Source: Candidatus Bathyarchaeota archaeon (GTDB taxonomy: Archaea > Thermoproteota > Bathyarchaeia > Bathyarchaeales > DTEX01). From it: a stretch of 64,000 nt of DNA. The position numbers and the translations under genes are program-made. Shown here piece by piece: positions 1 through 35,272 of the stretch (position 1 is its first letter; each line of letters opens with the position of its first letter). The stretch is from NCBI GenBank assembly GCA_025059045.1, contig JANXEA010000007.1, positions 62,001 through 126,000 on the forward strand, read 5' to 3'. The notes beneath the pieces were generated by a model, which worked only from the letters and a program-made list of their open reading frames with translations, searched no databases and was not told the DNA's origin.

Positions 1-1188
1 TAGTGGGAAGTAATCTGTCCTATAGGCCCACTCGACCCCCATGTCGGAGTACATCTGCTGTGATTCATAGGCCTTGTCAATTATTTCTTCTATGCCGATG
101 ATTGTTGTCGATATGGAGCCTGACTCCTCCCTTTTAATGAGGAATCTGTCTGGGATGTCCTTTATCATCCTGGCAGATTCATATGCCCCATTGACCGCTA
201 AGACGAATGGTCTGGTCATCTCTAGTGGGCAGTTAATCTCTTTATCAAGGCCCCTGACGTATCTGGCTATGTTTCTGAACATTTCGACTCTTTCATCTTT
301 CCCGTCCTCTCTTATCAATTCTCTCCTGCCGTCTGAGTAGATTATTTGTGCGTCACCCCCAACTGTCCACTCGGCGACACCCTTAGTCCCAACGATCCTG
401 TGAGCGGGGCTGCTCTGGACTGGGTTGCAGAGTGTGGTGTAAAAGTAGATTCTTGCGCCGCCGCTTACCTCTACCTCAAGGCAGGCGGTATCCTCGCCCT
501 CTATCCTATGCCCTCTATAAAGCTCAGCCCTTACCTTGATTGGATCTGCAGCCCTGCCCCATTCTCTGCTTGCGAGGTATAGGGAGTTCATTAGGTAGTG
601 GGCTAGGGGGTTGCTGATCGATCCGTCTAAGACGTACTCTCCGTCACACATGAGCTTGCCTGCCCAAGTGTTGCGTGTATAATATGAGTCGAGCCTCTTC
701 CATTTGCCCTTAGCGGAGACTGAGACTATCTCCCCCAACCCATCCTCACAGATGAGGGTCTTCAGTCTGCGGACAATGGTCTTCGACTGAAACTGGAATC
801 CGACTGCGCAGAATCTTCCCGACCTCTTCTCAGCCGCGATCATTGCGTCAAGGTCCTGGATTGTTACAGCGGGGGGCTTCTCGACCAGAACATTGAACCC
901 CGCCTCAAGTGCCATGATCGTCATGTCCCTGTGCTGATGTATGGCCGTAGGCAATGCGATAATCTCGGTTCTCCCTTTCTCCCCCACTAAAAGATCCTCA
1001 AAGTTATTATATACTGTCACGCCCTTCCCACGGAAGTCAGCCACCTCTCTAGGATACTTTTCCGGGCTTCTGATAACGACGGCGGAGATTCTTATAAGCC
1101 CCTCACCCTCCAGCGCTCGGGCGGCCCTGACATGAACCGCGCCGTATCCGCCTACACCTACTATGGCGACCGTGACAGGCTCCATCAT
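1..1188 (-). CDS. Gfo/Idh/MocA family NAD(P)-dependent oxidoreductase, 3' end outside the window
   Basis: The protein starts at ATG 1188 and reads open to the left edge for about 396 codons. The N-terminus has the Rossmann dinucleotide motif (AIVGVGGYGAVH). Then comes the family's EKPPA segment, which holds the Lys expected near the active site (VLVEKPPAVTIQDLD). The C-terminal part has the beta-sheet pattern of the GFO_IDH_MocA C-domain. Such enzymes oxidise or reduce sugars, inositols or uronates in the cytosol; the substrate cannot be told from sequence. A GTG at 1200 is an in-frame alternative start; ATG 1188 is preferred because a weak GTGAG lies just upstream. Uronate enzymes elsewhere in the window make a sugar-acid role possible, but this is inference. 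Confidence 0.85.
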   Translation of the reverse strand, partial: MMEPVTVAIVGVGGYGAVHVRAARALEGEGLIRISAVVIRSPEKYPREVADFRGKGVTVYNNFEDLLVGEKGRTEIIALPTAIHQHRDMTIMALEAGFNVLVEKPPAVTIQDLDAMIAAEKRSGRFCAVGFQFQSKTIVRRLKTLICEDGLGEIVSVSAKGKWKRLDSYYTRNTWAGKLMCDGEYVLDGSISNPLAHYLMNSLYLASREWGRAADPIKVRAELYRGHRIEGEDTACLEVEVSGGARIYFYTTLCNPVQSSPAHRIVGTKGVAEWTVGGDAQIIYSDGRRELIREDGKDERVEMFRNIARYVRGLDKEINCPLEMTRPFVLAVNGAYESARMIKDIPDRFLIKREESGSISTTIIGIEEIIDKAYESQQMYSDMGVEWAYRTDYFPL

Positions 1189-1278
1189 AGTTTCACTCAC
1201 TGGAAACCTGTGACAGAATATCAGATCATCATATTTTAGCCTTTTCCGTCCAAAACCATTCTCGCCGACTCTAAGCGA

Positions 1279-1314
1279 ATCGAAAATAGAAGTGAAATTC
1301 TCTTTATTTTCGAT
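1279..1314. promoter_or_regulatory. 10-bp perfect inverted repeat upstream of the oxidoreductase gene
   Basis: ATCGAAAATA at 1279-1288 is matched by TATTTTCGAT at 1305-1314 with a 16-nt spacer. It lies about 90 bp upstream of the minus-strand oxidoreductase start, where an operator would sit. It could also be a transcribed hairpin. The role is inferred from position only. Confidence 0.3.
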
Positions 1315-1808
1315 CCCCCCTCCTAGGTGTTTATATACTCTAATCATGCTTTGGCTCTGATCAATGTTCCTAAAAAAATAACCACTAAACTACTATTGCT
1401 GTTGAAAAATTCACATTCCACGAGCCAAAAAATAAAACATGCAAGATTTCTAGTGCAGATAATCAACCTGCCGAAAATTTCGACGATAACATCCTGAACG
1501 GATTATCTTTCGGTTAACAATCATTTGACCATGGTTATTATCAACAACAAAAGTGAAAGTTTTAAGGCGAGCATCTATGAAATAGGCAAAGCCCCTCATA
1601 ACAGAAGATTTAAATCATAAATCACTTCTAAAGTGCATGATATAGTCTCATCTTCAATAAGATTAGTGACCCTGTATACAAGATTTAGAATGGATAAATT
1701 GAAAGTCTAAAAATCGCGTCCATGGAAAACGCTTAGAATAAATTTAGACCGCCTAAGTAACTAATTTCGTAATCCAGCAGTATCTAGGTTGCATTTTCAG
1801 CCCTAAAT

Positions 1809-2015
1809 CTAGGTGGAGTAAACTCTAGCCCAAGACAGGTCGCAGCAGAACTTAATATCGGATATGTTCTGAGATGAGGGAAGTCGAAGATCCGACCTTT
1901 GCATTCTCCTCACGTCAACCCAATCGGGCATGGACAGTGCCAACAGGTCCCTCACAGAGGACGTAATATTCCTATTATCAACCGTCCCCCCAAAAATATC
2001 ATTCGCGAGTCTCAT
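1809..2015 (-). pseudogene. Possible C-terminal relic of an NAD-dependent epimerase/dehydratase
   Basis: This 68-codon frame ends with a segment (RMQRSDLRLPSSQNISD, then CCDLSW) that resembles the C-terminus of GDP-mannose-dehydratase-like short-chain epimerases. Those typically read RLRPSDVP, a D..K motif, then LGW. The Rossmann fold and YxxxK active site are absent, and in-frame stops lie directly upstream. The match is short and partly degenerate, so a chance frame cannot be excluded. Confidence 0.25.
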
Positions 2016-2150
2016 AACTATGCCCTATTCTCATTTCTCCTCTTTTTGAAACCCCTAGAATAGACCCTTTGCATAATGCGTTCTAGTCCATTAAACAATC
2101 CAAGGACTTAAAAATTGCAATTATGAAAGGCACACCAGAACTAGAGGTGC

Positions 2151-2228
2151 TGGTGCTCCGGCCGGGATTTGAACCCGGGTCTCCGGCTCGAAAGGCCGGA
2201 ATACTTGGCCGGACTATACTACCGGAGC
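2151..2228 (-). tRNA. tRNA-Glu (anticodon TTC), CCA encoded
   Basis: Read on the minus strand, GCTCCGG (2222-2228) pairs with CCGGAGC near 2155-2161 to form the acceptor stem. The discriminator is A and CCA is encoded at 2151-2153. The anticodon arm CCGGC-CTTTCGA-GCCGG gives anticodon TTC after T33. The T-arm GGGTTCGAATCCC is standard. No intron is present. Confidence 0.97.
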
Positions 2229-2250
2229 CCTGAACTATACTATCTCGGGT

Positions 2251-2260
2251 CCTTTATTTC
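2251..2260 (-). promoter_or_regulatory. TATA-like element of tRNA-Glu
   Basis: On the minus strand GAAATAAAGG lies about 25-32 nt upstream of the mature tRNA 5' end, the usual position of an archaeal TATA box. The call rests on position and AT content only. Confidence 0.35.
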
Positions 2261-2460
2261 CGTTTTCTTATTTTATATTGGGGAGGCATCATATTTGCAA
2301 TGTCTAAAATTCAAATACTGCTTCAATTAATTTCTTTTTCCTTTCCCGCAACCTAACGATTAATCTTTGCAAAAAGTTCAGTGAGGTCTAACTCCTTTTC
2401 AGGTCTGATAAGGCTTATGAGGCAGTGCAAAGTAGTTTTTGCAGTTTGTGGTGGCGACTT

Positions 2461-3000
2461 ATGCCGAGTCCGCTCGGTCACTATACCCTCGCATATTTGA
2501 TCCACAGGGTTGAGAGGAGGCTTAGCCTTCCAGCGCTCCTTATCGGGTCAGTCCTTCCAGATCTAGATATCATTTTAGCAATCTTGACAGATGGGCTATG
2601 GATGAGGGGGCTCTTTCACAGCATAATCGGCGGAGGGATGATAGTCGCATTCCTATCTATTCCAGTAACAGTCCACCTTTATCCATTGATAGCCTCACTA
2701 TTTGTCCGTATGCGTAGAGAGGATTTGAGGAGGGAGTGTGGTTCGGCAAGGGTCATATTTGCCTCATCACTCTTAGGCGGTTTGTCCCATGTTCTAGTAG
2801 ATTCCACATGCCACAATTATAATCCGCTCTTCTATCCAATTGTGAAAGAATCTGTAGATTTTCTGCTTCTACCATACGATTGGGATGTCTCATATGCGAT
2901 GGTGGAGGCGACACTCCTCACAACGTTTCTCATTATCATTGCCTTTAATTTGAGGAGGGAAGATTGTAAAGGGTTCTGGAGAAGGATGCTTCTCGGCTAG
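2461..3000 (+). CDS. Membrane-bound metal-dependent hydrolase family protein (YbcI/DUF457-like)
   Basis: About 179 residues from ATG 2461, chosen because GGTGG sits 6 nt upstream and the family usually starts MPSPLGH. The N-terminus has the conserved His (GHYTLAYLIH). A GSVLPDLD motif follows, then LFHSI and LSHVLVDSTCH; these are the His/Asp residues that mark the LexA-regulated membrane hydrolase group. Hydrophobic segments (SIIGGGMIVAFLSIPV, the central region and the C-terminal TTFLIIIAF) indicate an integral membrane protein. The substrate is unknown. It converges with the MetE-like gene. Confidence 0.75.
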   Translation: MPSPLGHYTLAYLIHRVERRLSLPALLIGSVLPDLDIILAILTDGLWMRGLFHSIIGGGMIVAFLSIPVTVHLYPLIASLFVRMRREDLRRECGSARVIFASSLLGGLSHVLVDSTCHNYNPLFYPIVKESVDFLLLPYDWDVSYAMVEATLLTTFLIIIAFNLRREDCKGFWRRMLLG

Positions 3001-3039
3001 ACCTGTAAAAAAACCAGTTTTTAATGAGTGCAGCGTTAT

Positions 3040-4029
3040 TTAAAGATTGAACCTTTTGATGGCTGCAACGAGGCTCTCCAGCTTCTTGACGGATATCATG
3101 TAAGCTTCATCCTGCCCAATATTTCCGGAGGCGAGTTTTCTGAATCCGCAGTCAGGCGTGAAGATCAGTCGGCTCCCATACTCCCGGAACCTATTCATCA
3201 GGGCCAGAACTTCCTCTGGAGTTTCAACAATCGTTTTACTCGTTGAAAGGCAGCCGACTGAGAGAATCTTTCCACGATCCCTAACATCGTCAGCATGGTA
3301 AACATTAATGTTTTCCGGGGTATCATGGAACTCGTGGCTTAGAAAGTCTAACTCGGACCTTAGGAGAATTTGCGCAAGCCTAGGAGGTATCCTGCCACAT
3401 ATGTGTGTTCCGACAAGCCGATCCCCGCAGGCGTTCCGAAGCCTACTAAACACGCTGAGGATGTAGTCTTCACTATAACCGAATAGGATCCGCGAGCCGA
3501 CTAAAATGCCCAATACAGGCTCATCAATAGAAATCATCTCAGCATACTTTGAAGCCTCACGGCAGGTTGCCTCCAAAACATCCGTGAGCTGATCCACAAT
3601 CTTAGGGTCTGAAGAAGCCGTATTATATGGAAAGACTCCGCCACCCCTCTGGATAAAGGAGGCCAAAGTGAAGGGTCCCGTTATAGGCGCCTTAATTCGA
3701 ACCTTCGCGCGGAGCCCCTTCTGGCTTAGATACCTAACCGCCCACACAAGCTGATCTAAACCTATGGGCCGAATATCCCAAGAAGGCACGCTTACAACTA
3801 AACGGTACACGTCACCATGGCTAACCAGCCCCGAACCTGTGGATGCCAAATCTCGGAGAAACTGGTCCCCCATCCCTATGAGCTGAGGGTATGCGGGAAA
3901 ATCAATCCCAATCCTCAATAGATCATCAATACACCTTCTCCTATTATCCTCACTATCCTCAAGGGGGAAGCTCCCGATAGTCGATGTCACGGCGCCAACA
4001 AACTCCAGTTCCCAGCACCCCCATATCAT
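3040..4029 (-). CDS. MetE-like (cobalamin-independent methionine synthase, catalytic domain) methyltransferase
   Basis: The 329 residues match the C-terminal catalytic half of MetE only; the N-terminal half of bacterial MetE is absent, as in the short archaeal form. The opening TSTIGSFP is the typical first strand. Zinc ligands are visible as the His/Cys pair in GTHICGRIPP and a distal Cys in TPDCGF. An acidic ISIDEPVL motif marks the barrel. Archaeal short MetE proteins transfer a methyl group to homocysteine, probably from a corrinoid donor rather than folate. The ATG at 4029 has no clear Shine-Dalgarno; an AT-rich TTTTAAGG about 35 nt upstream suggests a short leader. Confidence 0.8.
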   Translation of the reverse strand: MIWGCWELEFVGAVTSTIGSFPLEDSEDNRRRCIDDLLRIGIDFPAYPQLIGMGDQFLRDLASTGSGLVSHGDVYRLVVSVPSWDIRPIGLDQLVWAVRYLSQKGLRAKVRIKAPITGPFTLASFIQRGGGVFPYNTASSDPKIVDQLTDVLEATCREASKYAEMISIDEPVLGILVGSRILFGYSEDYILSVFSRLRNACGDRLVGTHICGRIPPRLAQILLRSELDFLSHEFHDTPENINVYHADDVRDRGKILSVGCLSTSKTIVETPEEVLALMNRFREYGSRLIFTPDCGFRKLASGNIGQDEAYMISVKKLESLVAAIKRFNL

Positions 4030-4180
4030 AGAAAAGAGTTAGAATAGAAAAAGATATCCTTAAAACGGCAGGCACCTCAAGTCAGGATGCCAGTCGCCTA
4101 CAAAGATGTACTGCATAAGCTGCAAGTCCTCCATTAATACAAAAAATTATCGCTAATATTTCCACCTTAGAAAAAATATG

Positions 4181-4195
4181 GAAAATCTTTTAAAC
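4181..4195 (+). promoter_or_regulatory. BRE/TATA-like promoter of the transporter block
   Basis: GAAAAT followed by CTTTTAAAC lies about 40 nt before ATG 4234. A purine-rich BRE-like stretch ahead of a TATA box is the usual archaeal arrangement. It would give a leader of roughly 10-20 nt carrying the AAGGTGG ribosome site. No transcript data support it. Confidence 0.4.
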
Positions 4196-4233
4196 GAACA
4201 ATAAAAGAATTGGTGTAAAAAGGTGGTCCGAAA

Positions 4234-6276
4234 ATGTCAGAGCAAGAAAGACTTTCCGGATTTACTCTAAGATCATTCATTTTTAGCATTATCTTCTGCG
4301 TGATTAGCGCAATCGTCTTGGTCTATACGGGATACATAAGTTTCTATAATCCAGTAAAGGCATCAGCAAGCAGCGCTTGGACCGGGCCCTTAAGCGGTGC
4401 ATTAGGAGCCGCGGCGAAAGAATACAATTCAGGGCTCATGACCTACATCCCCATCCTAATGATCTTCTCCCTTTTAGCCATCATCTTTTCGATGGTTCCG
4501 GCGAAGTGGAGGTTCACAAAGTCTGAGATGGCATTCATCTATTCCATGGTTGCCGCAACACTAGTCTGGGTTCAGGGTGGATACATATGGGGACAGTTAC
4601 TGATGCAAGCGCTCAGTCGCCCAAGCCTATTCCTTAACGTCCTGGGGAATATGTATCCAATTAAGGATACTAGCGAGATGCTTGCATTGGCCAACAAGTT
4701 CCGTACCGGCGGGATTGCAATCAACTGGGCAAGCTGGATAATGCCAATCGCCATTACAATATCGATCTTCTGCTCAATGTCGTTGCTAGGCAACTTTTGG
4801 GCGTTAATATTGAATAAGATTTGGGTTGAACAAGAAGACCTGCCATTCCCAATGTCCGTGCCAATATCCGAAATGATAAACATGTCGTCTGAAGGCATAC
4901 GCAGACTTGCCAAAGAGAAACTCTTGTGGCTCGGCGTAGTCCTATGCGTAGCATTTGCCTTCTCAAACTGGGGTAATCCTTCTGATCCCTTCCAAAACAC
5001 GTATCGGGCCAGAGACATCTTCACCATATACTCAACCAATTTCGGGCCCGCATACTTCGGTATAGGCTTCTCATTACCCGAACTGGGACTCATACTCCTG
5101 CTCCCACCTTATGTGTCCCAAAGCATGGCGATAGGCGCGCTGATAATATGGACGGTATATCCTCTAGTAGCCACCGCAACAGGGTTTATGGCAAATAAGC
5201 CGGCTCCTGGACAGTGGTCCGTATTCATGAATGATTTCTCACCAGATAGCCCGACCTATAGGCTAGGATTAGCTCCAGCGGTCTGCGGGGCCCTGATAGG
5301 ATTCGCCCTATGGCCGCTGATAGTAAACTGGCGGCAATTAAAGGAGTCGCTGACAAAATCATTCAAGCAGCCGAAGAATGAGTATGGAGATCACAAAATA
5401 GCATGGATTGGAATGATTGTATGCGCCATCTGGTTTATAGCGGCGGCCATAGGCTGGGGGGTTCCGCTACAATACACAATAATTGTTCTTGGAAGCGCGA
5501 TGCTGATACACACAGCATTCGCTAGGATCATTGCAGAATCCGGCGGAGGATGGTACGGGCTAATAGGCGACCCTGTTGCAAACATTCAAGGCGGATACAT
5601 AGGAATGTTCGTATTGAACCAGCCGGAAACTGTTACGCTGCCCGTGATGACGTTGAACGTACTATACACTCAATCATATAACGGGATGAATCGTAACACA
5701 CCAATGTACAGAATAAATGAGGCCTATGCTGTTGGTAGACAGATGAAGACAAGAATGCGGGACCTCCTACTAGGCTCCACACTGGCAACAATTATAGGTG
5801 TAACAGTAACAACGGTGCTGACCCTCTGGCTTATGGGCACATACGGATGGATGCAGAGGTACCCAGGCCCATGGTTCATGTGGCCATCATACGAAGATCC
5901 AACGAAGGGAAGCATCCAGTGGGGAATGGGAGCAGTTCCATTCAATCCAAGCATATTCATATGGATCTTCGGATTCGGCACCCTCCCAGTAATCGCTCTT
6001 TACCTCCTAAGATCCACGGTCGGCGGAATCTTCCTCCAAATTTCGCCGGTAGGATTATGGTCAGCTGCACATTATACATCATACATAACATGGATCACAT
6101 ATTTGATAGGTAGTTTAATCGTGAGATTAGCCAACAGAATTGGTGGAAGAGAATATTACGAAAAGAAAATAATGCCCCTCGGCGTCGGCCTACTCTTAGG
6201 CTGGGGGGTAACATGGCTTATACGATATAGCATCATGTGCTGGCAAGCCTTCATCCTCAGAATGGGTTTCCCATAG
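4234..6276 (+). CDS. OPT-like polytopic membrane transporter (paralogue 1)
   Basis: A 680-residue protein with around 14 predicted membrane segments, the first at about residues 15-35. Motifs of the oligopeptide-transporter superfamily include LPFPMSVPISEMI (about residue 205) and RIIAESGGGW (about residue 430), followed by YNGMNRNTP. The ATG has a good AAGGTGG site about 8 nt upstream. The next gene, 41 bp on, encodes a second distantly similar polytopic protein, so the two may form a heteromer or are diverged duplicates. A large peptidase-like/FtsX-like fusion follows. The substrate is unknown; peptides or metal chelates are the family precedent. It could equally belong to an uncharacterised archaeal membrane family related to OPT. 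Confidence 0.7.
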   Translation: MSEQERLSGFTLRSFIFSIIFCVISAIVLVYTGYISFYNPVKASASSAWTGPLSGALGAAAKEYNSGLMTYIPILMIFSLLAIIFSMVPAKWRFTKSEMAFIYSMVAATLVWVQGGYIWGQLLMQALSRPSLFLNVLGNMYPIKDTSEMLALANKFRTGGIAINWASWIMPIAITISIFCSMSLLGNFWALILNKIWVEQEDLPFPMSVPISEMINMSSEGIRRLAKEKLLWLGVVLCVAFAFSNWGNPSDPFQNTYRARDIFTIYSTNFGPAYFGIGFSLPELGLILLLPPYVSQSMAIGALIIWTVYPLVATATGFMANKPAPGQWSVFMNDFSPDSPTYRLGLAPAVCGALIGFALWPLIVNWRQLKESLTKSFKQPKNEYGDHKIAWIGMIVCAIWFIAAAIGWGVPLQYTIIVLGSAMLIHTAFARIIAESGGGWYGLIGDPVANIQGGYIGMFVLNQPETVTLPVMTLNVLYTQSYNGMNRNTPMYRINEAYAVGRQMKTRMRDLLLGSTLATIIGVTVTTVLTLWLMGTYGWMQRYPGPWFMWPSYEDPTKGSIQWGMGAVPFNPSIFIWIFGFGTLPVIALYLLRSTVGGIFLQISPVGLWSAAHYTSYITWITYLIGSLIVRLANRIGGREYYEKKIMPLGVGLLLGWGVTWLIRYSIMCWQAFILRMGFP

Positions 6277-6317
6277 ACTAGCGTCCGCACACTCCTCCCT
6301 TTTTGGAAGATGGGAAA

Positions 6318-8225
6318 ATGAGTGACAAGTGGGTCCTCCACAACATAGATAAGTTTGAGAGCGGGCTCACATGGCGGTCAATATTAGCCATGCTCTACTG
6401 CCTATTTGTCATAACCCCCGCAACCTTATGGATGAACCTTGTCATAGTTGGCGGCGAAGGATTCGGCGGGGTCGTTGGATTATTTCTACTACTCATATTC
6501 ACGGAATATTCAAGATTTTCATCTAAACGCTTGACCCCCCAAGAGGCGACCCTAATATTCGGACCAGCAGCTATCGCTGGTAGCGGATTATTCATAACCC
6601 TAATATACCGGGCATACTTTATGCAAAGCCCATTACCAAAACTCTTCAATATACCGATTGAAGAAATACCTTCATGGTGGGCGCCGCAGCCAACATTCGA
6701 CGCACTTAGAGCCAGAACATTCTTCACCCCAGAATGGCAGCTCCCAATCCTAGTCGCGGTCGTCGCAGACATAGCCGGATATTTGGGCGCATTCTTCTTC
6801 GGTCTTCTACTTAGAGAACTCTATATAGAGAATGAGAGGCTCCCTTTCCCAATCCAGCAGATACGAGCCGTTGCCATAGTAACACTCGTTGAAAGAGAAG
6901 AAAAAAGGATGGAAGTGTTGTCGTGGTCTTTTCTCGTCTCATTCCTTTATGGTATGGTGCTGCATATCCTGCCCACGGTAACGTTAGCGCTTGGAAAGGA
7001 GGCGAGGGTAATACCCCTACCATGGATTGACTATTACAAGATTATTGAGCCAGTTCTGCCCGGAGGTGCCTTCGGATTGGCTACAAGCCTCATCATTCTC
7101 GCGCAGGGGATAATGCTGCCCCCCATTATTGTTATCTGTATATTTGCAGGATCAATCCTGAGGTTTCTAATAATCAATCCATTATTGGTGAAGATGGGAT
7201 GGACCGAATGGGCCAATTATTACATGGGCGGAATGGACATCACAAAGATCTATCAGTACTCAACCCTCTACTACTGGCTGAACCCATTAATTGGAGTAGG
7301 CTTAGCCTTGGGGTTCGTTCCGCTTCTGCTCCGCATAAGAACACTTGCACATCAAGTCAAGGATATTCTCACTGGCAAAATATCTGCTGATGCGGATAGA
7401 ATAAGCGGAGAAAGATTCCCCGGATGGTTTATGGCTGTATTGTTTGGAGGGGGCATCCTACTACCCATAATCATCGATTATCTTCTCGTTCCGGAATTCC
7501 CAGTATGGGGGCTAATACTATACGAGTTCATATTCCCCCTAGCCATAGGATTAATGTCTGGGAGGATGGTAGGCGTTACTGGGCAGGGAGCAACCATTCC
7601 ATACACTGGCCAGCTTACAGTCCTCCTGAGTGGAATGGCCGATAAAACGGCTGCCTGGTTCCTGCCGCTCAGGCTTAATACTGGAGTCGAGATCCTAACA
7701 GAACTTAAGGTATGCCAATTAACTAGAACAACAGCCAGCAGCTTCCTCAAAATGAATATGCTCGCCTACCCACTTGCCCTCTTAGCCGGCTTAATATTTA
7801 CACAGATGTTCTGGGCTCTGGCTCCAATACCGTCAAGCCTTTTCCCAGCTCCAGCAATCAGCTGGCCCATATCAATAATGAACCAATGCGCCTGGATAAC
7901 TAGGCCGGAGAGGTTCTTTAGAATACCAGATATCCTTACATGGCTGATTGGATATGGCAGCTTGATCGTAGTCCTTAACTTCATGAATATGCCAACATTG
8001 GCCGTGGGTCTTGCCGCAGGCCTCCAAACTCCCATACCGATCCCGGTGACTATGCTGATAGGTCTATCTGCGGGTAAAGTATTAGCTAGGATTAGTGGGG
8101 AGAAATGGTACGGTGAGAACCGTACAAGCATCGCAGCTGGGCTCATGCTGGGTGAAGGAACAGCGATAATCTTCGCTGTTGCAGGCGGATTGGCGATAAA
8201 GGCGATATGGGCTTCACCATTCTAG
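6318..8225 (+). CDS. OPT-like polytopic membrane transporter (paralogue 2)
   Basis: About 635 residues with many membrane segments. It shares the fold pattern of its upstream neighbour: ENERLPFPIQQIRAV corresponds to the LPFP segment of paralogue 1, and a Gly-rich VTGQGATIPYTG region lies in the second half. ATG 6318 is preferred over an in-frame TTG at 6303, which has no ribosome site. The gene lies 41 bp after paralogue 1 in the same direction, so co-transcription is likely. The family assignment is by resemblance; substrate and energy source are not visible. Confidence 0.65.
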   Translation: MSDKWVLHNIDKFESGLTWRSILAMLYCLFVITPATLWMNLVIVGGEGFGGVVGLFLLLIFTEYSRFSSKRLTPQEATLIFGPAAIAGSGLFITLIYRAYFMQSPLPKLFNIPIEEIPSWWAPQPTFDALRARTFFTPEWQLPILVAVVADIAGYLGAFFFGLLLRELYIENERLPFPIQQIRAVAIVTLVEREEKRMEVLSWSFLVSFLYGMVLHILPTVTLALGKEARVIPLPWIDYYKIIEPVLPGGAFGLATSLIILAQGIMLPPIIVICIFAGSILRFLIINPLLVKMGWTEWANYYMGGMDITKIYQYSTLYYWLNPLIGVGLALGFVPLLLRIRTLAHQVKDILTGKISADADRISGERFPGWFMAVLFGGGILLPIIIDYLLVPEFPVWGLILYEFIFPLAIGLMSGRMVGVTGQGATIPYTGQLTVLLSGMADKTAAWFLPLRLNTGVEILTELKVCQLTRTTASSFLKMNMLAYPLALLAGLIFTQMFWALAPIPSSLFPAPAISWPISIMNQCAWITRPERFFRIPDILTWLIGYGSLIVVLNFMNMPTLAVGLAAGLQTPIPIPVTMLIGLSAGKVLARISGEKWYGENRTSIAAGLMLGEGTAIIFAVAGGLAIKAIWASPF

Positions 8226-8342
8226 CAGGGCTCAATGATCAGATATAAGAGGATTGTGGGGCAAAAATTCATAAATGAAATCTGGAAAACGCCTTAGGTA
8301 GGCTGGCTGTGATGAAACGTAGGATTCGCGGGAGGACTGGAA

Positions 8343-11300
8343 ATGAGAAAGAGTGTTAACATACATTACACTTTATCTCTCCTTATTCTACTCATGGTGC
8401 TCTCCCATGTCTCAGCGAAGACTTGCGCATATTCTGAGGGAGACCCTGCAGGCGCCGATTACGCCAGATTCGCTGAACTTTTCAGCGTCTCTAACGTCGA
8501 GGAACACCTACGATCATTGGTCACATTCTCTCCTAGAGTGACAGGTTACAACGGCTGTTCACTGGCCGCCGAATACATAAAAAAACATTTTGAAAGTTTA
8601 GGATTAGAATCCAGCCTGCACGAGTATGAAGTAGTGGTGCCCGTTAGCTACGGAGCAAGTATAGAGCTCCTAGACCACCCCGAGGTGGAGCTCAGAATTT
8701 ATCCGATGGTGCCAAACCTCGTCTCACCAGTCACGACTACCGGGACGTTAGCACCGATAATCGACGTGGGAGACGGAGACCTAAGAAACATCGAAGGAAA
8801 AGAAGTCAACGGCAGCCTTCTACTCATGGATTGGAATAGTGGGTGGAATTGGCTTCAAGCCGTAAAGTTCGGGGCCGCTGGCGTAATATTTGTGGAACCA
8901 AACTCGGAGCCTATCTCCGTCATGGACAAATGGGTTGACATACCTATTAAGTTCCTCAGATATTACATGACCTTCGATGACGCAGTTAAGCTGCGGAAGA
9001 TCCTATCTTCTGAAGGTCAAGTAATGGCCCATATTAAATCAAAGATGGCTTGGGAGAAGCGAGGTGCAAGTAATGTAATCGCATATTTGAGGGGAACCGT
9101 TCGAGCAGATAAGATAGTGATGGTAACCGCGCATTACGATTCATATTCCGTAGCGCCTGAGCTCTCCCCAGGTGCAAACAGCGCGGTAGGAGTCGCAACT
9201 CTTCTCGAACTAGCACGCGTAATAAAGGAGGTTGGATCCAAGTACACGATACTATTTGTGGCATATTCAGGTTATTACCAGAACCTTTGGGGAGCCAAGA
9301 ACTTCGTTTTTGACTATTTCTATGATGAAAACTCAGATTTACGCAGTAAAGTGCTGATGCAGATTCACCTCCAAATATCAACAGAGACCGACATATTAGC
9401 CACTAACAACATTATGGGTGAGATAGCGGAGTCAATGCTCACACTAGGCGGTTTACCCGGATACAGTTACACAGTCAAGGTTAACAATTACGTTCATCAG
9501 ATAATGAGTATAATTAATCGTGCGACCGGCAAATCTTACAAGCTAGTTTCAGCCCTAGTTGGTGTTCCAAACGATTATGGGATGAGCATATACTTCCCTG
9601 CATTAGCATGGAATAAGGGAAGTGATGGATCAGTTTTAGTTGCCCATGGTGTTGCGGGTCTCTCCATATTGACAGTTGAGCGAGCTGCCTATGACTGGTT
9701 GCCAAACGATAACCTTAATCGCCTAAACCTAGAGAATCTCAGGAAAAATTCTATGGCAGCCTCCCTCCTAGTATATGGAATAGCGGCTACTGAAGGACTT
9801 GAGGAATATGTCAGAGACTTCAAATATAGGAATGCATGGAACACTTGGAGGGGTAGAACAGCCATCTTCGATGAAGCGTCGAACGAGTATAAGCCACTTC
9901 CAAATGCCCTCATAATATTCTCTTCAGGCCATTCAAACCTTAAATACGTTGGCAACATCATTCAAATCGAAGATTTTGCAAAGCCGACGAGCTCGACAGT
10001 TTCAATAATAATGTCTGATGATGAAGGGAGATGGGAGTTCACTGCACCGCTAGGAGATCTTGGTCCAAGGGATAAGATAATCTCAAACCCAGAGCGAGTT
10101 CCAGCTTACGTATACCAAGCCTTCGTTTTAGATGAGACTACAGGCGAGATAATTTATGCTCCAACATATGGAAGGTTCAGCTGGCCCAGCACTAATCCCC
10201 CGACGATTACCAGCGGGCCAGAGATTCGACAATATGACCTAGGCTGGCTTACGCTGGGCGAATGCGGCACACTCATCCTAACGGATCTGATCTATCCAAA
10301 TTCACTGGACACAAGATACGCCGGTAGACATCTCCAACTATCCGTGGAAGTCCTAGATGCTTATACCTATGTGAGACCAGACTTCTATGGATATTTTTAT
10401 GCATGGCATGAAACATACGGTATCGGGATCGCATCTATTTACGTCCCCCCAGAAACACCAGTAATGATTATGCTAAGGTACGATGGGCTAGGAGACATTC
10501 CGTGCGGATTTCTCATAAATGCAAGTGAAGAGAAACCGGGGGGACATGGCTACAAACTGCGACGTGGAGAACAGTTTATAATACCACTTTCATCCTACCG
10601 CATTGCAAGGGACATTTACTACGTCTCAAGTGCCCGTCTGTGCGAACTTGAGCGTTATGGACTTGCAGGAGAGTTATTAGATAGGAATGAGGAGCTAGCC
10701 CTTACCCTCAGGAGGATAGAATATTATATTGCAAAGAAAAATTATTGCGAAGCCTTCAGCCTCTCATACCATGCTTGGGCTCAAGCGTTAAACAACTACA
10801 TTGATGTCCGTCTCCGATATTTCGATGTTATTGGCACTTTGCCCTTCCTCGCAATCCTGCTTGTGCCGTTCACGGTTCTATTCGTGCCCCTAATCTTCGG
10901 TGCAAGCGGACGTAAACAGATAATCCTCATCTTAACAGTCTTCGCGGTAACCCTAACGGTCTTCACTATACTGCATCCCGCATTCAGCTTGGCTTCTAAC
11001 GGACCTATGAGTGTCGTAAGCGTCAGCATAATATTAATGACTATGCCAGTTCTTCTAGTTCCCATCTCAAAGTGCCGAGACAGCATAAAACGTTTAGCAA
11101 TAAGGGTTGGTGGAATACACTTCTCCGAGATTAGCATGGGCTCAGCCTCTATTCTCGCATTTCAAGTTGGCCTAGAGAATATGAAGAAAAGAAAGGTTAG
11201 ATCGCTGCTTACCTTCCTGACGGTGATTCTTGTCGTGATGGCCTTCACCTTGTTTGCTTCCATATCCGCAAGCCGGATCGTCCAACCTTCGTTACTGCAA

Positions 11301-30552: not shown

Positions 30553-31242
30553 TTGGTCGATTCGCTCTCGAAAGCCGTCCAGACGCTCATCGATAATGAC
30601 TCCTCAATTCGGGACGCGCTGGAGAGAGGTTACGCCAACTATTCAGCGGTCGCTCGCCTACTAAAACCGAAGATCGAAGAAGTCTTGGGCAGAACTGTCA
30701 CAATCAGCGGTTTGACGACTGCTGTCAAAAGGGCAAAGAGATATGGAACCCCAAGAGCGGATTCTCTAAAGATTATAGCGGAAAGTACAATAAACCTCAG
30801 AACACATGTCGCAAAGATATCTTTGGAGAAGACGAGAAGGAATCTGGAAAAGGCAAGGCTCCTCTCAGCAGATTTCCCAGAAGCCTTTTTCCAAGTTCTA
30901 GAGGGCGCGACAACCTTAACATTAATCACAGATCAGAAGATATTTGGAAAAGTGTGCTCAACATTTCCCAGCGAGGAAATCCTTGAGAAAAAAGAAGATT
31001 TGGCGGCGATAATTCTTCAAAGTCCCAAGGAAATCGTTAATACTCCAGGATGCATCTCAATCTTTTACAGTCTCCTCTCAAGGTGGCAGATAAACATCGA
31101 GGAGACAATCAGCTGCTACAATGAAACCATCATTATAATAAGGATGGAGGACGCCCCAAAATCTTTCAGCCTAATGACCGAACTAATCTCCAACACGGGA
31201 AGGATGCTGAAGGAAACTGTGAGAGAACATATGCGGTGTTGA
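30553..31242 (+). CDS. Putative HTH plus ACT-like domain regulator, divergent from argG
   Basis: 229 residues from TTG 30553; a stop lies three codons upstream in frame. The N-terminal third (NYSAVARLLKPKIEEVLG, ISGLTTAVKRAKRYG) looks like a small helix-turn-helix unit. The C-terminal part has two beta-alpha-beta stretches: TTLTLITDQKIFGKV and PGCISIFYSLLSRWQINIEE followed by ETIIIIRMED. This pattern is typical of paired ACT domains that sense amino acids. The divergent position and the shared inverted repeat make it a candidate regulator of arginine genes. The family name is not known to me. Confidence 0.65.
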   Translation: MVDSLSKAVQTLIDNDSSIRDALERGYANYSAVARLLKPKIEEVLGRTVTISGLTTAVKRAKRYGTPRADSLKIIAESTINLRTHVAKISLEKTRRNLEKARLLSADFPEAFFQVLEGATTLTLITDQKIFGKVCSTFPSEEILEKKEDLAAIILQSPKEIVNTPGCISIFYSLLSRWQINIEETISCYNETIIIIRMEDAPKSFSLMTELISNTGRMLKETVREHMRC

Positions 31243-31386: not shown

Positions 31387-32043
31387 GTGTCCGGGGTCGT
31401 TGTAAGCGGGGTAGGTGCCCGCTTACCAAATGGGCGCGAATTACTTTCCCCGCTTTTAAGTTCAGGGGCCTCTTCGCTTCCGGGTGTTGAAGTGAGGGGT
31501 GGAATATACGACTTCGAAGGGAGGGTTGAGTGTTATAGGCGGCTGATTGCAAAGTTGCCCAACGGCCAGATGGCCGTCCGCTTTCTGGACCACCTTGGCA
31601 GTTTGGGCCTAAGCCAAGCGGCGCTGAGCAACTACGCCAGCCACCTTGTAGTGATCCTGCGGCTGATGGACTTTGACCCGGCTAGGGCAACCCGCAGCGA
31701 TGTGGAGCGGGTTGTGGCCGCCATAAACCGGAACAGGCTCTGGAGGGAGGCAACTAAGCATCATAAGAGGGTTGTGCTGCGAAAGTTAATACAATACGCC
31801 AAGTATGGAAGCTGCGATAAGACTAATCCGCTGCCGCCTGAGGTAAGCTGGATCAAGCTTGCAAGGCAAGATAAGGGCTCGCGTATGACGCCTGAAAAGT
31901 TTCCAGGAGCGTCCGTCAAACTCGGGGATAAAACCATCCTGGTCTTATCCTCAGGCCGCCTCGTATGCGTAGGATCCAAATCGCTTATGGAGGCAAGCCA
32001 AACGATTTACCAATTTAAGCAAATGCTCGCTTCCATGCGGTAA
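31387..32043 (+). CDS. Integrase core-binding domain joined to a TBP-like repeat
   Basis: 218 residues from GTG 31387. Residues about 45-155 match the SAM-like core-binding domain of archaeal tyrosine recombinases (FLDHLGSLGLSQAALSNYAS, ATRSDVERVVAAINR, LPPEVSWIKLARQ). Where the catalytic domain with R..HxxR..Y should begin, the sequence instead reads PEKFPGASVKL, ILVLSSGRLVCVGSKS and MEASQTIYQFKQML. This is the hallmark of one TATA-binding-protein repeat (PE.FPG, SSGK.VC.GAKS). No recombinase catalytic residues are present. The N-terminal GVVVSGVGARL could be the first strand of the same repeat, in which case the integrase domain is inserted into it. Third positions are clearly GC-richer than in neighbouring genes, suggesting transfer. 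A DNA-binding regulator of a mobile element is one possibility. Confidence 0.75.
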   Translation: MSGVVVSGVGARLPNGRELLSPLLSSGASSLPGVEVRGGIYDFEGRVECYRRLIAKLPNGQMAVRFLDHLGSLGLSQAALSNYASHLVVILRLMDFDPARATRSDVERVVAAINRNRLWREATKHHKRVVLRKLIQYAKYGSCDKTNPLPPEVSWIKLARQDKGSRMTPEKFPGASVKLGDKTILVLSSGRLVCVGSKSLMEASQTIYQFKQMLASMR

Positions 32044-32509: not shown

Positions 32510-32844
32510 TTACTGATGTTGTCTATGTATACTTTTGCTGTTCATTTGGGTATGACGGCTACGCCTAAGCGGATGACAACATTGATACTTATGCCTATTT
32601 TGGTGAGATGGTCTACTCTTATAGTATTGGTAAGGCTATTGAGGATGGGTTTTCGGCGCCTTTCCAGATTTTTAAGGCGTTTACGAATATTGACCGTGAT
32701 GGTTTGCACATCAAAGATGCGTTGTATCAAGGTGCTCAGTTCTATATTCCTGAAGAGGCTGATTTGAAGGAAATTTATACTTTGGAGGATTTTGAGCGGG
32801 AGATTGTTTTGCCCGATAGGACGGCTAAGATTTGTGACTATTGA
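32510..32844 (+). pseudogene. Broken type I restriction HsdR / DEAD-helicase fragment
   Basis: In one frame the sequence reads AVHLGMTATPKR, the helicase motif III region. One base out of frame it continues DNIDTYAYFGEMVYSYSIGK, then AIEDGFSAPFQ and DFEREIVLPDRT. These are consecutive segments of type I restriction R-subunits (GLTATP.R, TY.YFG.PVY.YSL..GIEDGFLAP, Y...DFER...L..RT). The frameshift falls near 32573. The DNA-cleavage N-terminus and most of the helicase are gone. No hsdM or hsdS is present. Confidence 0.75.
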
Positions 32845-32888: not shown

Positions 32889-34445
32889 TTAGATCTCTAT
32901 CTTTAAAGATTCCGTGGTTAATCTTTTGGAGAGAAAATGGTAAACAAGATATGAGTATAGCATGATGACGGGAGACACGATCATATTAGTGACCAGGTCG
33001 ATATTAAGGATTGACATAATAATCATATAGGTAAATACAGGAGAGAGCAGTAGACCATATAGAATCATCGTGAGAAGTGCTAGGAGAAGTGAAGATACAG
33101 GTTTTCTGGACTTACTAATAAAATGTATGATGGTGTAAAGATTTAATGAGCAGCCTATTAGCGAGTTCGAAGCGATCACCACAGTGTACGTCAAACTATC
33201 CCTTAGTGAGAAGAGGCTTGCTGCATATAATGCTGTGAGGATTATTTGCGGAATTGCATAGGATAGCAGGATTAAATCGTAGAGTAGCGCCTTCAAAGTT
33301 TTTTCAAGACCATCAATCGTGGTGAGAGGTATCCAAAGATTATTGAATTCCCCAAGCCTCCACTGGCTCGCAAGAATGTTGGGGACGAGAAATGAATAAA
33401 AGATGAGTAAGAAAGGTGCGATGGATACAGGCGCATTCCTTAACCCCGTACCGAAAAATATGGCGACGTAGATGATAAATATGAGTAGGGTTCCGAAAAG
33501 GCTGCCATCCCTAGCCATCCTGATAAACTCCTTCTTCATGAGGAATAGAATCAATGGCTTTGGGGTGAAGCCTAAAGTGATTCTTAACCCGCCGATCTTT
33601 GAATACTGCCTAACTGAAGTCTGGAATCGAATGTTTTGCATCCTCATCGAAGTGTCGAAGGGAGATATTAAGGGTGTGGGCTTTGTGTATGGAAAGAAGT
33701 TTTTTGAAGATGCAGACAGAAACGGCAGAAACGTCATAATGAAGAAAGTTAAGAGCCCAATTACTGACTCAAGAGGCGGCGGCCTATCATATAGAAGGTT
33801 TATGATAGACCGAGCTAAGATCGATGAGGGAAGTGGAATATCTCCATAGCCAATTGGAAAGTATCCAATAAAATTGAAGGCAGGCATGACAAATATTGCA
33901 AGAATCCCAGCGGAGAGAGTATTCGCCAACAGCCTATGACCTATCGACCTAAGTATCGAAAAGAAGATCTTCAGGAAGATAAGCGAAAAAAGGAAAAGGA
34001 AAGAGAGAGCCAAGGTAATGACCAGCGTCGACACTGATACGCTCAACATAACCGATGCGAGAGGCAGGATGGCGAAACACACAAAGTAGAAGATTGAATA
34101 CATGACCAGATCGGAAAGTATGCTGGCAACCAAGTATGTTCGTGGAGAAACAGGTGAAGTTAGAATCACATCATACTCATATTCAAAAACCATCATGCCC
34201 CTAAACGAAGTTAGTATTGTAATGATGATGAAAAAGCTGAGAAATGCCGACAGTTGGTCAATATATGGGAGCAGATTAATTCCGGTCTTAATAGCATTTG
34301 CCGCTGCAAAAGCCATACCCGCACTTGCGAAAAGGAAATACACGACCCAAAAGATGGTTAGAGCCATATTCGCCTTTGACGCCCTTAACGTTCCAAGGAA
34401 AACTTTAAGCTTGAATCTGAAAATACTCCAGAGAATGCGCATCAT
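32889..34445 (-). CDS. ABC transporter permease, large polytopic
   Basis: About 518 residues with roughly 12 hydrophobic segments in two sets (about residues 27-250 and 325-510) joined by a soluble stretch holding SASSKNFFPYTKPTPLISPF. The segment MKKEFIRMARDGSLFGTLLI begins the second half, as in ABC-2-like export permeases. ATG 34445 overlaps the ATPase stop (TGATG) and has AGGA 7 nt upstream; GTG 34448 is an alternative. Paired with the adjacent ATPase it forms an exporter of unknown substrate. Confidence 0.82.
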   Translation of the reverse strand: MMRILWSIFRFKLKVFLGTLRASKANMALTIFWVVYFLFASAGMAFAAANAIKTGINLLPYIDQLSAFLSFFIIITILTSFRGMMVFEYEYDVILTSPVSPRTYLVASILSDLVMYSIFYFVCFAILPLASVMLSVSVSTLVITLALSFLFLFSLIFLKIFFSILRSIGHRLLANTLSAGILAIFVMPAFNFIGYFPIGYGDIPLPSSILARSIINLLYDRPPPLESVIGLLTFFIMTFLPFLSASSKNFFPYTKPTPLISPFDTSMRMQNIRFQTSVRQYSKIGGLRITLGFTPKPLILFLMKKEFIRMARDGSLFGTLLIFIIYVAIFFGTGLRNAPVSIAPFLLIFYSFLVPNILASQWRLGEFNNLWIPLTTIDGLEKTLKALLYDLILLSYAIPQIILTALYAASLFSLRDSLTYTVVIASNSLIGCSLNLYTIIHFISKSRKPVSSLLLALLTMILYGLLLSPVFTYMIIMSILNIDLVTNMIVSPVIMLYSYLVYHFLSKRLTTESLKIEI

Positions 34446-35272
34446 CACACTTTCCTAAACCTGTGCCAAAGGCTGGGTCTCTTCTTAAGTGGTTCCTCTG
34501 AAGTCTGGATCTGCGATTCCTTTTCCGCCTCCTCAGTGAGTTTAAGAAAGACCTCCTCCAATGTGGAACTCTCCCCAGACCTGGACATCTCCCGTAGACT
34601 TCTTAGATCTCCAGCCGCTACATTCTTTCCCTTATGAATGATTGCAACCCTGTTACAGATTCTTTCAGCGGTATCAAGCATGTGAGTGGATATGAAGACA
34701 GTTTTTCCTCTCTCAATCCTTTCACTAAAAAGTTCTTTGAGCTTATGCTGCCCAGCCGGGTCGATTCCCACTAACGGCTCATCCAAGATGAGTAGTTCAG
34801 GATCATGAATAAGGGCTGATGCAACGGCAACCTTTTGCCTCATACCTTTTGATAGGCCAAGGATCAGGGTCTTCCCCTTATCGCTTAGATCAAATTCGTT
34901 AATGTAGAAATTCATTCTCTCTCTTATCTCCTCGTCTGGAACACCCCTAATTCTCCCCGAATATATGAGAAACTCTTCTATGGTAAGATAATCTGGGAGA
35001 GTGACAACCTCCGGCACATACCCGATGAACCTCTTGTATTGTATAGGTTCATCTTCAATATTTACGCCATTAACTCTAACCGCCCCCCTATCCATTTTCA
35101 GAAGCCCGACAATTATTTTAAGGGCGGTTGTCTTACCAGCGCCATTCGGCCCAACAAGCCCAAAGATCTCTCCCCTCAAAACTTCTAGATTAAGCCCCCT
35201 TAGAGCCTGCACACCATTATATGCTTTCCAAACGTCAAAGAGTTGAAGAATCTGCAATGCCTCAGTCGTCAT
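34445..35272 (-). CDS. ABC transporter ATP-binding protein
   Basis: 275 residues with Walker A GPNGAGKTTALK (about 41-52), signature LSKGMRQKVAVASALIHDPE, Walker B LLILDEPLVGIDP and switch His in FISTHMLDTAE. The signature reads LSKGM rather than LSGG, common in ABC-2 export ATPases. A polar tail ending RFRKV follows the nucleotide domain. It overlaps both neighbours by 3-4 bp, so kinase-like gene, ATPase and permease are translated together. Confidence 0.93.
   Translation of the reverse strand: MTTEALQILQLFDVWKAYNGVQALRGLNLEVLRGEIFGLVGPNGAGKTTALKIIVGLLKMDRGAVRVNGVNIEDEPIQYKRFIGYVPEVVTLPDYLTIEEFLIYSGRIRGVPDEEIRERMNFYINEFDLSDKGKTLILGLSKGMRQKVAVASALIHDPELLILDEPLVGIDPAGQHKLKELFSERIERGKTVFISTHMLDTAERICNRVAIIHKGKNVAAGDLRSLREMSRSGESSTLEEVFLKLTEEAEKESQIQTSEEPLKKRPSLWHRFRKV

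What the first reader, a model, noticed from the sequence alone, without database searches (positions are those of the whole stretch)
31387..32043. Tyrosine-recombinase core-binding domain joined to a TATA-binding-protein repeat
Seen: the N-terminal two thirds match the SAM-like domain of archaeal integrases. The catalytic domain is absent; instead the protein ends PEKFPGASVKL...ILVLSSGRLVCVGSKS, the signature of one TBP repeat. Third positions are GC-rich compared with neighbours. The first residues (GVVVSGVGARL) may be the first TBP strand, so the recombinase domain might be inserted inside a TBP repeat. Inference: two DNA-binding modules have been combined, perhaps as a transcription or excision regulator of a mobile element, or as a decoy TBP.
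Basis: partly seen in the sequence, partly recalled or inferred. Interest (0 to 1): 0.88.

Follow-up and report, generated by a model that had tools for sequence, protein, structure and literature searches.

The report
Integrase stump fused to TBP scrap
In a Bathyarchaeota genome, the front third of a tRNA-targeting integrase gene has been joined in frame to the last 50 codons of a TATA-binding-protein gene inside a decayed mobile-DNA island; this looks like an accident of gene decay rather than a purposeful two-domain regulator.

Summary
The ORF is real, and both halves were correctly recognised. Residues 36-168 are the N-terminal (core-binding) region of a Bathyarchaeota tyrosine integrase family, 40-64% identical to tRNA-linked relatives. 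The last ~50 residues are the C-terminal part of a TBP repeat (PF00352, 29 bits, above cut-off). The catalytic and zinc-ribbon domains are gone. The "first TBP strand" is probably not coding: homologues show this DNA is att/promoter region, and the likely start is GTG 31492 (183 aa). The join lies on CCTGAA, shared in phase by integrase (TPE) and TBP (PE) codons. None of 257 genomes searched in the class has the fusion; every match stops at the join. The TBP piece lacks the first strand and helix of its repeat, has lost a conserved Phe, and keeps 12 of 28 columns where the TBPs compared keep 25 or more. The integrase piece is as conserved as its nearest full-length relatives. A frameshifted type I restriction (HsdR) relic follows, in an interval that holds an unrelated gene in a syntenic relative. 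Related archaea carry divergent TBPs beside restriction genes, a plausible donor. Best reading: a microhomology-made chimera in a collapsed island, possibly expressed, not a TBP.

The parts
31402..31428 (+). 9-bp inverted repeat (GTAAGCGGG / CCCGCTTAC) running into CA; possible mutilated tRNA 3' end or att remnant
   Evidence: read from the sequence; no tRNA called here; aligned by eye with tRNA-CCA ends of relatives
31432..31449 (+). degenerate T-arm-like att sequence (GGGCGCGAATTACTTTCC)
   Evidence: by-eye alignment with GGGTTCAAATCCCTTC in the same place upstream of related integrases
31453..31460 (+). TATA-like box CTTTTAAG, likely the integrase promoter
   Evidence: same place in the nearest integrase relatives; strict pattern in 22 of 51 upstream regions
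31492..32043 (+). chimeric ORF, 183 aa from the likely GTG start
   Evidence: start inferred from homologous starts in L002, L048, L049, L053, L058
31492..31890 (+). integrase N-terminal / core-binding region (133 codons)
   Evidence: 40-64% identity to integrases of related genomes; 29 of 37 conserved columns kept
31891..31896 (+). join: CCTGAA, present in both parent gene families in the same codon phase
   Evidence: all integrase matches end here
31891..32043 (+). C-terminal fragment of a TBP, most like repeat 2 of Bathyarchaeota TBPs with FPGA and LVCVG
   Evidence: PF00352 above cut-off, profile 21-84
32540..32844 (+). frameshifted relic of a type I restriction R subunit (HsdR)
   Evidence: NF046051 4.9e-10, PADLOC REase_I 4.5e-8, motif GMTATPKR in another frame
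30553..31242 (+). left flank: conserved ACT-like gene, next to argininosuccinate synthase
   Evidence: same neighbours in all 19 related loci compared; ACT_7 only a weak match
32889..34448 (-). right flank: ABC permease
   Evidence: syntenic in G016 (L102, L166)

Best explanation
A mobile island once sat between the ACT-like gene and the ABC permease. It carried a tRNA-targeting tyrosine integrase and probably a divergent TBP gene and a type I restriction cassette. It then collapsed by deletion. One illegitimate recombination, at a 6-nt CCTGAA present in both genes, joined codon ~133 of the integrase to the last ~50 codons of the TBP gene. Because the shared bases encode PE in the same phase in both parents, the join is in frame without selection. 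The result is a 183-codon ORF still behind the integrase's promoter-like sequence. If made, the protein can keep at most the integrase's N-terminal site-binding or multimerising function (inferred from SSV integrase work). It cannot recombine DNA and has no complete TBP repeat. Shown: both parentages, the shared bases at the join, the missing parts, the HsdR relic, the flanking synteny, and absence from the genomes searched. Inferred: that one island carried all three genes, the order of events, and the lack of function.
For: Every integrase match in the class (257 genomes) stops at the join. CCTGAA occurs in both parent families in phase. The integrase part is as conserved as its close full-length relatives (29/37 columns; L054, L058, L059 27-28/36-37), while the TBP part keeps 12/28 against at least 25/28 in all 27 TBP repeats compared. 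First strand and helix missing, two-residue loop deletion and LIF to LVL. HsdR relic downstream. In G016 the same interval holds a uracil-DNA-glycosylase-like gene instead. A sibling integrase stump in the same genome lies behind a tRNA-like gene and is broken by stops and a frameshift. Divergent TBPs occur beside hsdRMS (L167) and beside a TraG/HerA-type ATPase and DNA methylases (L168).
Against: The ORF has no stop in 183 codons and keeps a promoter-like sequence. The TBP motif PEKFPG...SSGRLVCVGSKS is still recognisable. No donor closer than about 45% was found. None of the integrase loci with up to 10 kb of flank carried a TBP except L152, where it is an ordinary full-length TBP. No tRNA is found at this site.
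Confidence: 0.77

Rival explanations
1. A functional chimeric regulator: the integrase core-binding domain targets att or tRNA sites, and the TBP-derived tail contacts TFB, a partner TBP or DNA, controlling excision or element promoters.
For: Intact reading frame and promoter-like box; integrase part well conserved; N-terminal halves of SSV integrases bind DNA and multimerise (PMC8371274); the window branch is shorter than that of its decayed sibling L002 (0.06 against 0.31 in the tree).
Against: Found in one genome only. TBP columns eroded (12/28), intercalating Phe lost, repeat incomplete. The frame is expected from the in-phase microhomology. The short branch covers time as a working integrase as well, and the codon model does not resolve selection.
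Confidence: 0.14
2. One reading: a recombinase domain inserted within one TBP repeat, whose first strand is the ORF's N-terminus.
For: GVVVSGVGARL resembles a TBP first strand by eye.
Against: That stretch is homologous to untranslated att/promoter DNA upstream of integrase starts, its base composition is not gene-like, and PF00352 finds nothing there. The first helix of the repeat is missing too.
Confidence: 0.02
3. Assembly chimera in a metagenome-assembled genome.
For: The named relatives are MAGs and this genome, in 27 contigs, is probably one too; reads are not available here.
Against: Genes on both sides, argininosuccinate synthase and ACT-like gene on the left, ABC permease, ATPase and 160-aa gene on the right, keep the same order in G016, and the join sits on homologous bases in phase, typical of a biological event.
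Confidence: 0.05
4. The TBP resemblance is chance.
For: Short segment, roughly 30-46% identical to the TBPs compared.
Against: PF00352 above its curated cut-off, ten NCBIfam TBP models, phmmer 5.8e-10, TBP chains among the top fold hits of a weak model.
Confidence: 0.01

Closest known systems
Bathyarchaeota tRNA-targeting tyrosine integrase family (e.g. L007, L010; PF00589 plus C-terminal zinc ribbon in L007)
   Same: The first 133 codons, the likely start and the upstream TATA-like and T-arm-like sequences correspond.
   Different: Catalytic domain and zinc ribbon are lost; no tRNA gene next to it; a TBP fragment follows instead.
Archaeal TATA-binding protein (PF00352)
   Same: The last ~50 residues derive from the C-terminal part of a TBP repeat, most like repeat 2.
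   Different: No first strand or helix of the repeat, no second repeat, one intercalating Phe lost, 12 of 28 conserved columns kept.
Divergent TBPs on Bathyarchaeota accessory DNA (L167, L168)
   Same: L167 places a TBP gene directly after hsdRMS; its second repeat aligns over the whole fragment.
   Different: Complete two-repeat proteins, not fused; only about 41-45% identical to the fragment.
Integrase gene fragments such as Int(N) of SSV-type elements (PMC8371274)
   Same: An N-terminal integrase fragment left in the chromosome.
   Different: Here the cut is at the boundary before the catalytic domain, not at an att site within the gene, and the stump continues in frame into another gene.

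Membership tests
TATA-binding protein (PF00352) | Profile match above the curated cut-off | tested here: met
   28.7-29.2 bits against 22.9
TATA-binding protein (PF00352) | Two complete repeats forming the saddle | tested here: not met
   one partial repeat, profile 21-84 of 85; no other TBP piece on this contig
TATA-binding protein (PF00352) | Conserved core of the repeat, including the intercalating Phe of the LIF motif | tested here: not met
   12 of 28 columns kept, real TBPs at least 25; LIF replaced by LVL
TATA-binding protein (PF00352) | Binding to TATA DNA and TFB | not testable with these tools
   needs gel-shift tests
Tyrosine recombinase | Core-binding (SAM-like) N-terminal domain | tested here: met
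   40-64% identity to integrases of related genomes; PF02899 itself below cut-off at 16.6-17.1 bits
Tyrosine recombinase | Catalytic domain (Arg/His/Tyr active site) | tested here: not met
   absent from the ORF; no catalytic-domain piece in the window
Tyrosine recombinase of this tRNA-targeting family | Gene next to a tRNA 3' end | tested here: not met
   no tRNA between 14.2 and 64 kb of the window; only att-like remnants
Conserved fusion protein family | Same domain order in other genomes | tested here: not met
   0 of 256 other genomes of the class; none in viral, phage or plasmid collections
Conserved fusion protein family | Purifying selection across the fused ORF | tested here: inconclusive
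   window-branch omega 0.31 in the integrase part, not distinguishable from 1 or from the background of 0.096; TBP part not tested

The most novel reading that the evidence does not exclude
The chimera is expressed and useful: an att-site-binding integrase stump carrying a TBP-derived tail that competes with integrases or recruits transcription factors at tRNA-embedded sites, that is, a newborn regulator made by gene collapse.
Probability: 0.08. Interest if true: 0.75.

Novelty: new variant of a known kind. Interest (0 to 1): 0.36.

Why it matters
As it stands it is a clean example of how shared bases in a collapsing archaeal island can make an in-frame chimera of two DNA-binding proteins, with both parents recognisable. 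It also points to something broader: Bathyarchaeota carry divergent TBP genes beside restriction and conjugation-type genes, which could let an element bring its own promoter-recognition factor. If the chimera proved to be expressed and active, it would be a regulator born from debris.

Tried and rejected
TBP strand 1 at the N-terminus: rejected. T-to-V in VCTG as a sign of TBP decay: first suggested by a small, biased set, then withdrawn because many Bathyarchaeota TBPs have VCVG in repeat 2. G059 hit L024 that seemed to cross the join: an ordinary TBP. Donor from the host's own tbp on C14: unlikely, 38-41% identity. attP inside the integrase gene recombining into a tbp gene (SSV style): not supported, since the family's att region is upstream of the start. 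Branch codon model: no power. Structure from a single sequence: pLDDT 61, weak fold hits, minor support only. The 432-aa ORF next to the TBP in L167 looks integrase-like by eye, but no profile confirmed it. Literature search for such fusions: nothing relevant in the titles and abstracts returned.

Full report
What is there. The ORF at 31387-32043 is open for 218 codons. Its middle matches the N-terminal region of a family of tyrosine integrases in related Bathyarchaeota genomes, many of them 440-510 aa long, with E-values to 2.4e-55 and 40-64% identity. One of them (L007) has Phage_integrase PF00589 and a C-terminal zinc ribbon. The last ~50 residues match TBP: PF00352 at 28.7-29.2 bits against a cut-off of 22.9, ten NCBIfam TBP models, and solved archaeal TBPs at 5.8e-10. 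Chance similarity is not a serious option for either part.

Where the gene really starts. In the near relatives the layout is tRNA 3' end, a second T-arm-like stretch, a TATA-like CTTTTTAAG, and then a GTG, TTG or ATG start. The strict TATA-like pattern is present in 22 of 51 upstream regions, mostly in the nearest relatives. The window keeps CTTTTAAG at 31453-31460 and GTG at 31492. Homology with the sibling stump L002, 67 kb away on the same contig and directly behind a tRNA-like gene, starts at 31449. The likely protein has 183 residues. The start is inferred from homology, not measured.

The join. All integrase matches in 61 relatives, in the order (163 genomes) and in the class (257 genomes) end at about query residue 170-174. 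The DNA there reads ACGCCTGAAAAGTTTCCAGGAGC. Integrase genes such as L009 and L060 read ACGCCTGAA (Thr-Pro-Glu), and a TBP gene such as L025 reads CCTGAACAGTTTCCAGGAGC (Pro-Glu-Gln-Phe-Pro-Gly-Ala). Six bases, CCTGAA, are common to both and in the same codon phase, so an in-frame product needs no selection. No other genome searched has the join. No relative of the query was found in viral, phage or plasmid collections. Two scans of the genome collection gave nothing and integrases.

State of the two parts. I counted how many highly conserved columns each part keeps compared with its own family. The integrase part keeps 29 of 37; its nearest relatives keep 27-28 of 36-37. The TBP part keeps 12 of 28; all 27 TBP repeats compared keep at least 25. 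The match starts at profile position 21, so the first strand and most of the first helix of the repeat are missing. The loop is two residues short, and the Phe of the LIF motif (from general knowledge of TBP, one of the residues that wedge into the TATA box) is replaced by Leu. The best matches are the second repeat of Bathyarchaeota TBPs with FPGA and LVCVG. The contrast between the two parts suggests that the TBP piece had already diverged before the join; this is inference. A branch codon model on the integrase part gave omega 0.31 for the window sequence, not separable from 1 or from the background, so selection after the join is in effect untested.

Neighbourhood. The gene to the left stays next to argininosuccinate synthase in all 19 related loci compared. 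In G016 the same left gene is followed by a uracil-DNA-glycosylase-like gene (named from its sequence by eye) and then by the same ABC permease, ATPase and 160-aa gene as in the window. The window instead has the chimera and, about 500 bases on, a frameshifted scrap of a type I restriction R subunit. Foreign DNA therefore probably came in here and decayed, and the synteny on both sides speaks against a mis-assembly. The genome holds one normal TBP and only fragments of this integrase family.

A plausible donor. Related genomes carry divergent extra TBPs among accessory genes: L167 has hsdR-hsdM-hsdS followed by a TBP gene; L168 has a TBP with a helicase, DNA methylases and a TraG/HerA-type ATPase. 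The L167 TBP aligns over nearly the full fragment, including the final helix, at 41% identity. That the window has integrase, TBP and HsdR pieces together fits an island of this sort. That all three came from one element is inference.

How it would work, if it works. According to the review of archaeal recombinases (PMC8371274), N-terminal halves of SSV integrases bind their DNA site and multimerise, while the N-terminal fragment lacks the catalytic domain. The chimera could at most bind att-like DNA. The tail has no complete TBP repeat and would not be expected to bind a TATA box or TFB in the normal way. The single-sequence structure model is poor (pLDDT 61); it shows helices in the first part and three strands plus a helix in the second, with TBP and XerA chains among weak fold hits.

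Verdict. The best reading is a microhomology-made chimera in a collapsed mobile island.

Noticed in passing
L167 (G088:C107) 3676-9471: A divergent two-repeat TBP gene lies directly after a complete type I hsdR-hsdM-hsdS set in a Bathyarchaeota relative; it looks like a restriction cassette with its own TBP.
   Followed up: partly
L168 (G049:C75) 499-8729; also L163, L164, L159: A second group of strongly divergent TBPs; in L168 it sits with a helicase, DNA methylases and a TraG/HerA-type ATPase, suggesting an integrative element that carries its own TBP.
   Followed up: partly
L155, L156, L157, L158 (IMG/VR contigs): Four viral contigs encode complete two-repeat TBPs only distantly related to the Bathyarchaeota ones.
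   Followed up: no
G000:C7:26415-26768 (L002), outside the window: Decayed N-terminal integrase stump directly behind a tRNA-like gene, 73% identical in DNA to the window's integrase part; similar fragments follow tRNA genes in other genomes (L017, L020).
   Followed up: partly
window 32540-32844: Frameshifted relic of a type I restriction R subunit.
   Followed up: yes
L049, L053, L058 and other integrase loci, upstream of the start: A second T-arm-like repeat (close to GGGTTCAAATCCC) lies between the tRNA 3' end and the integrase TATA-like box, perhaps part of the att site.
   Followed up: no
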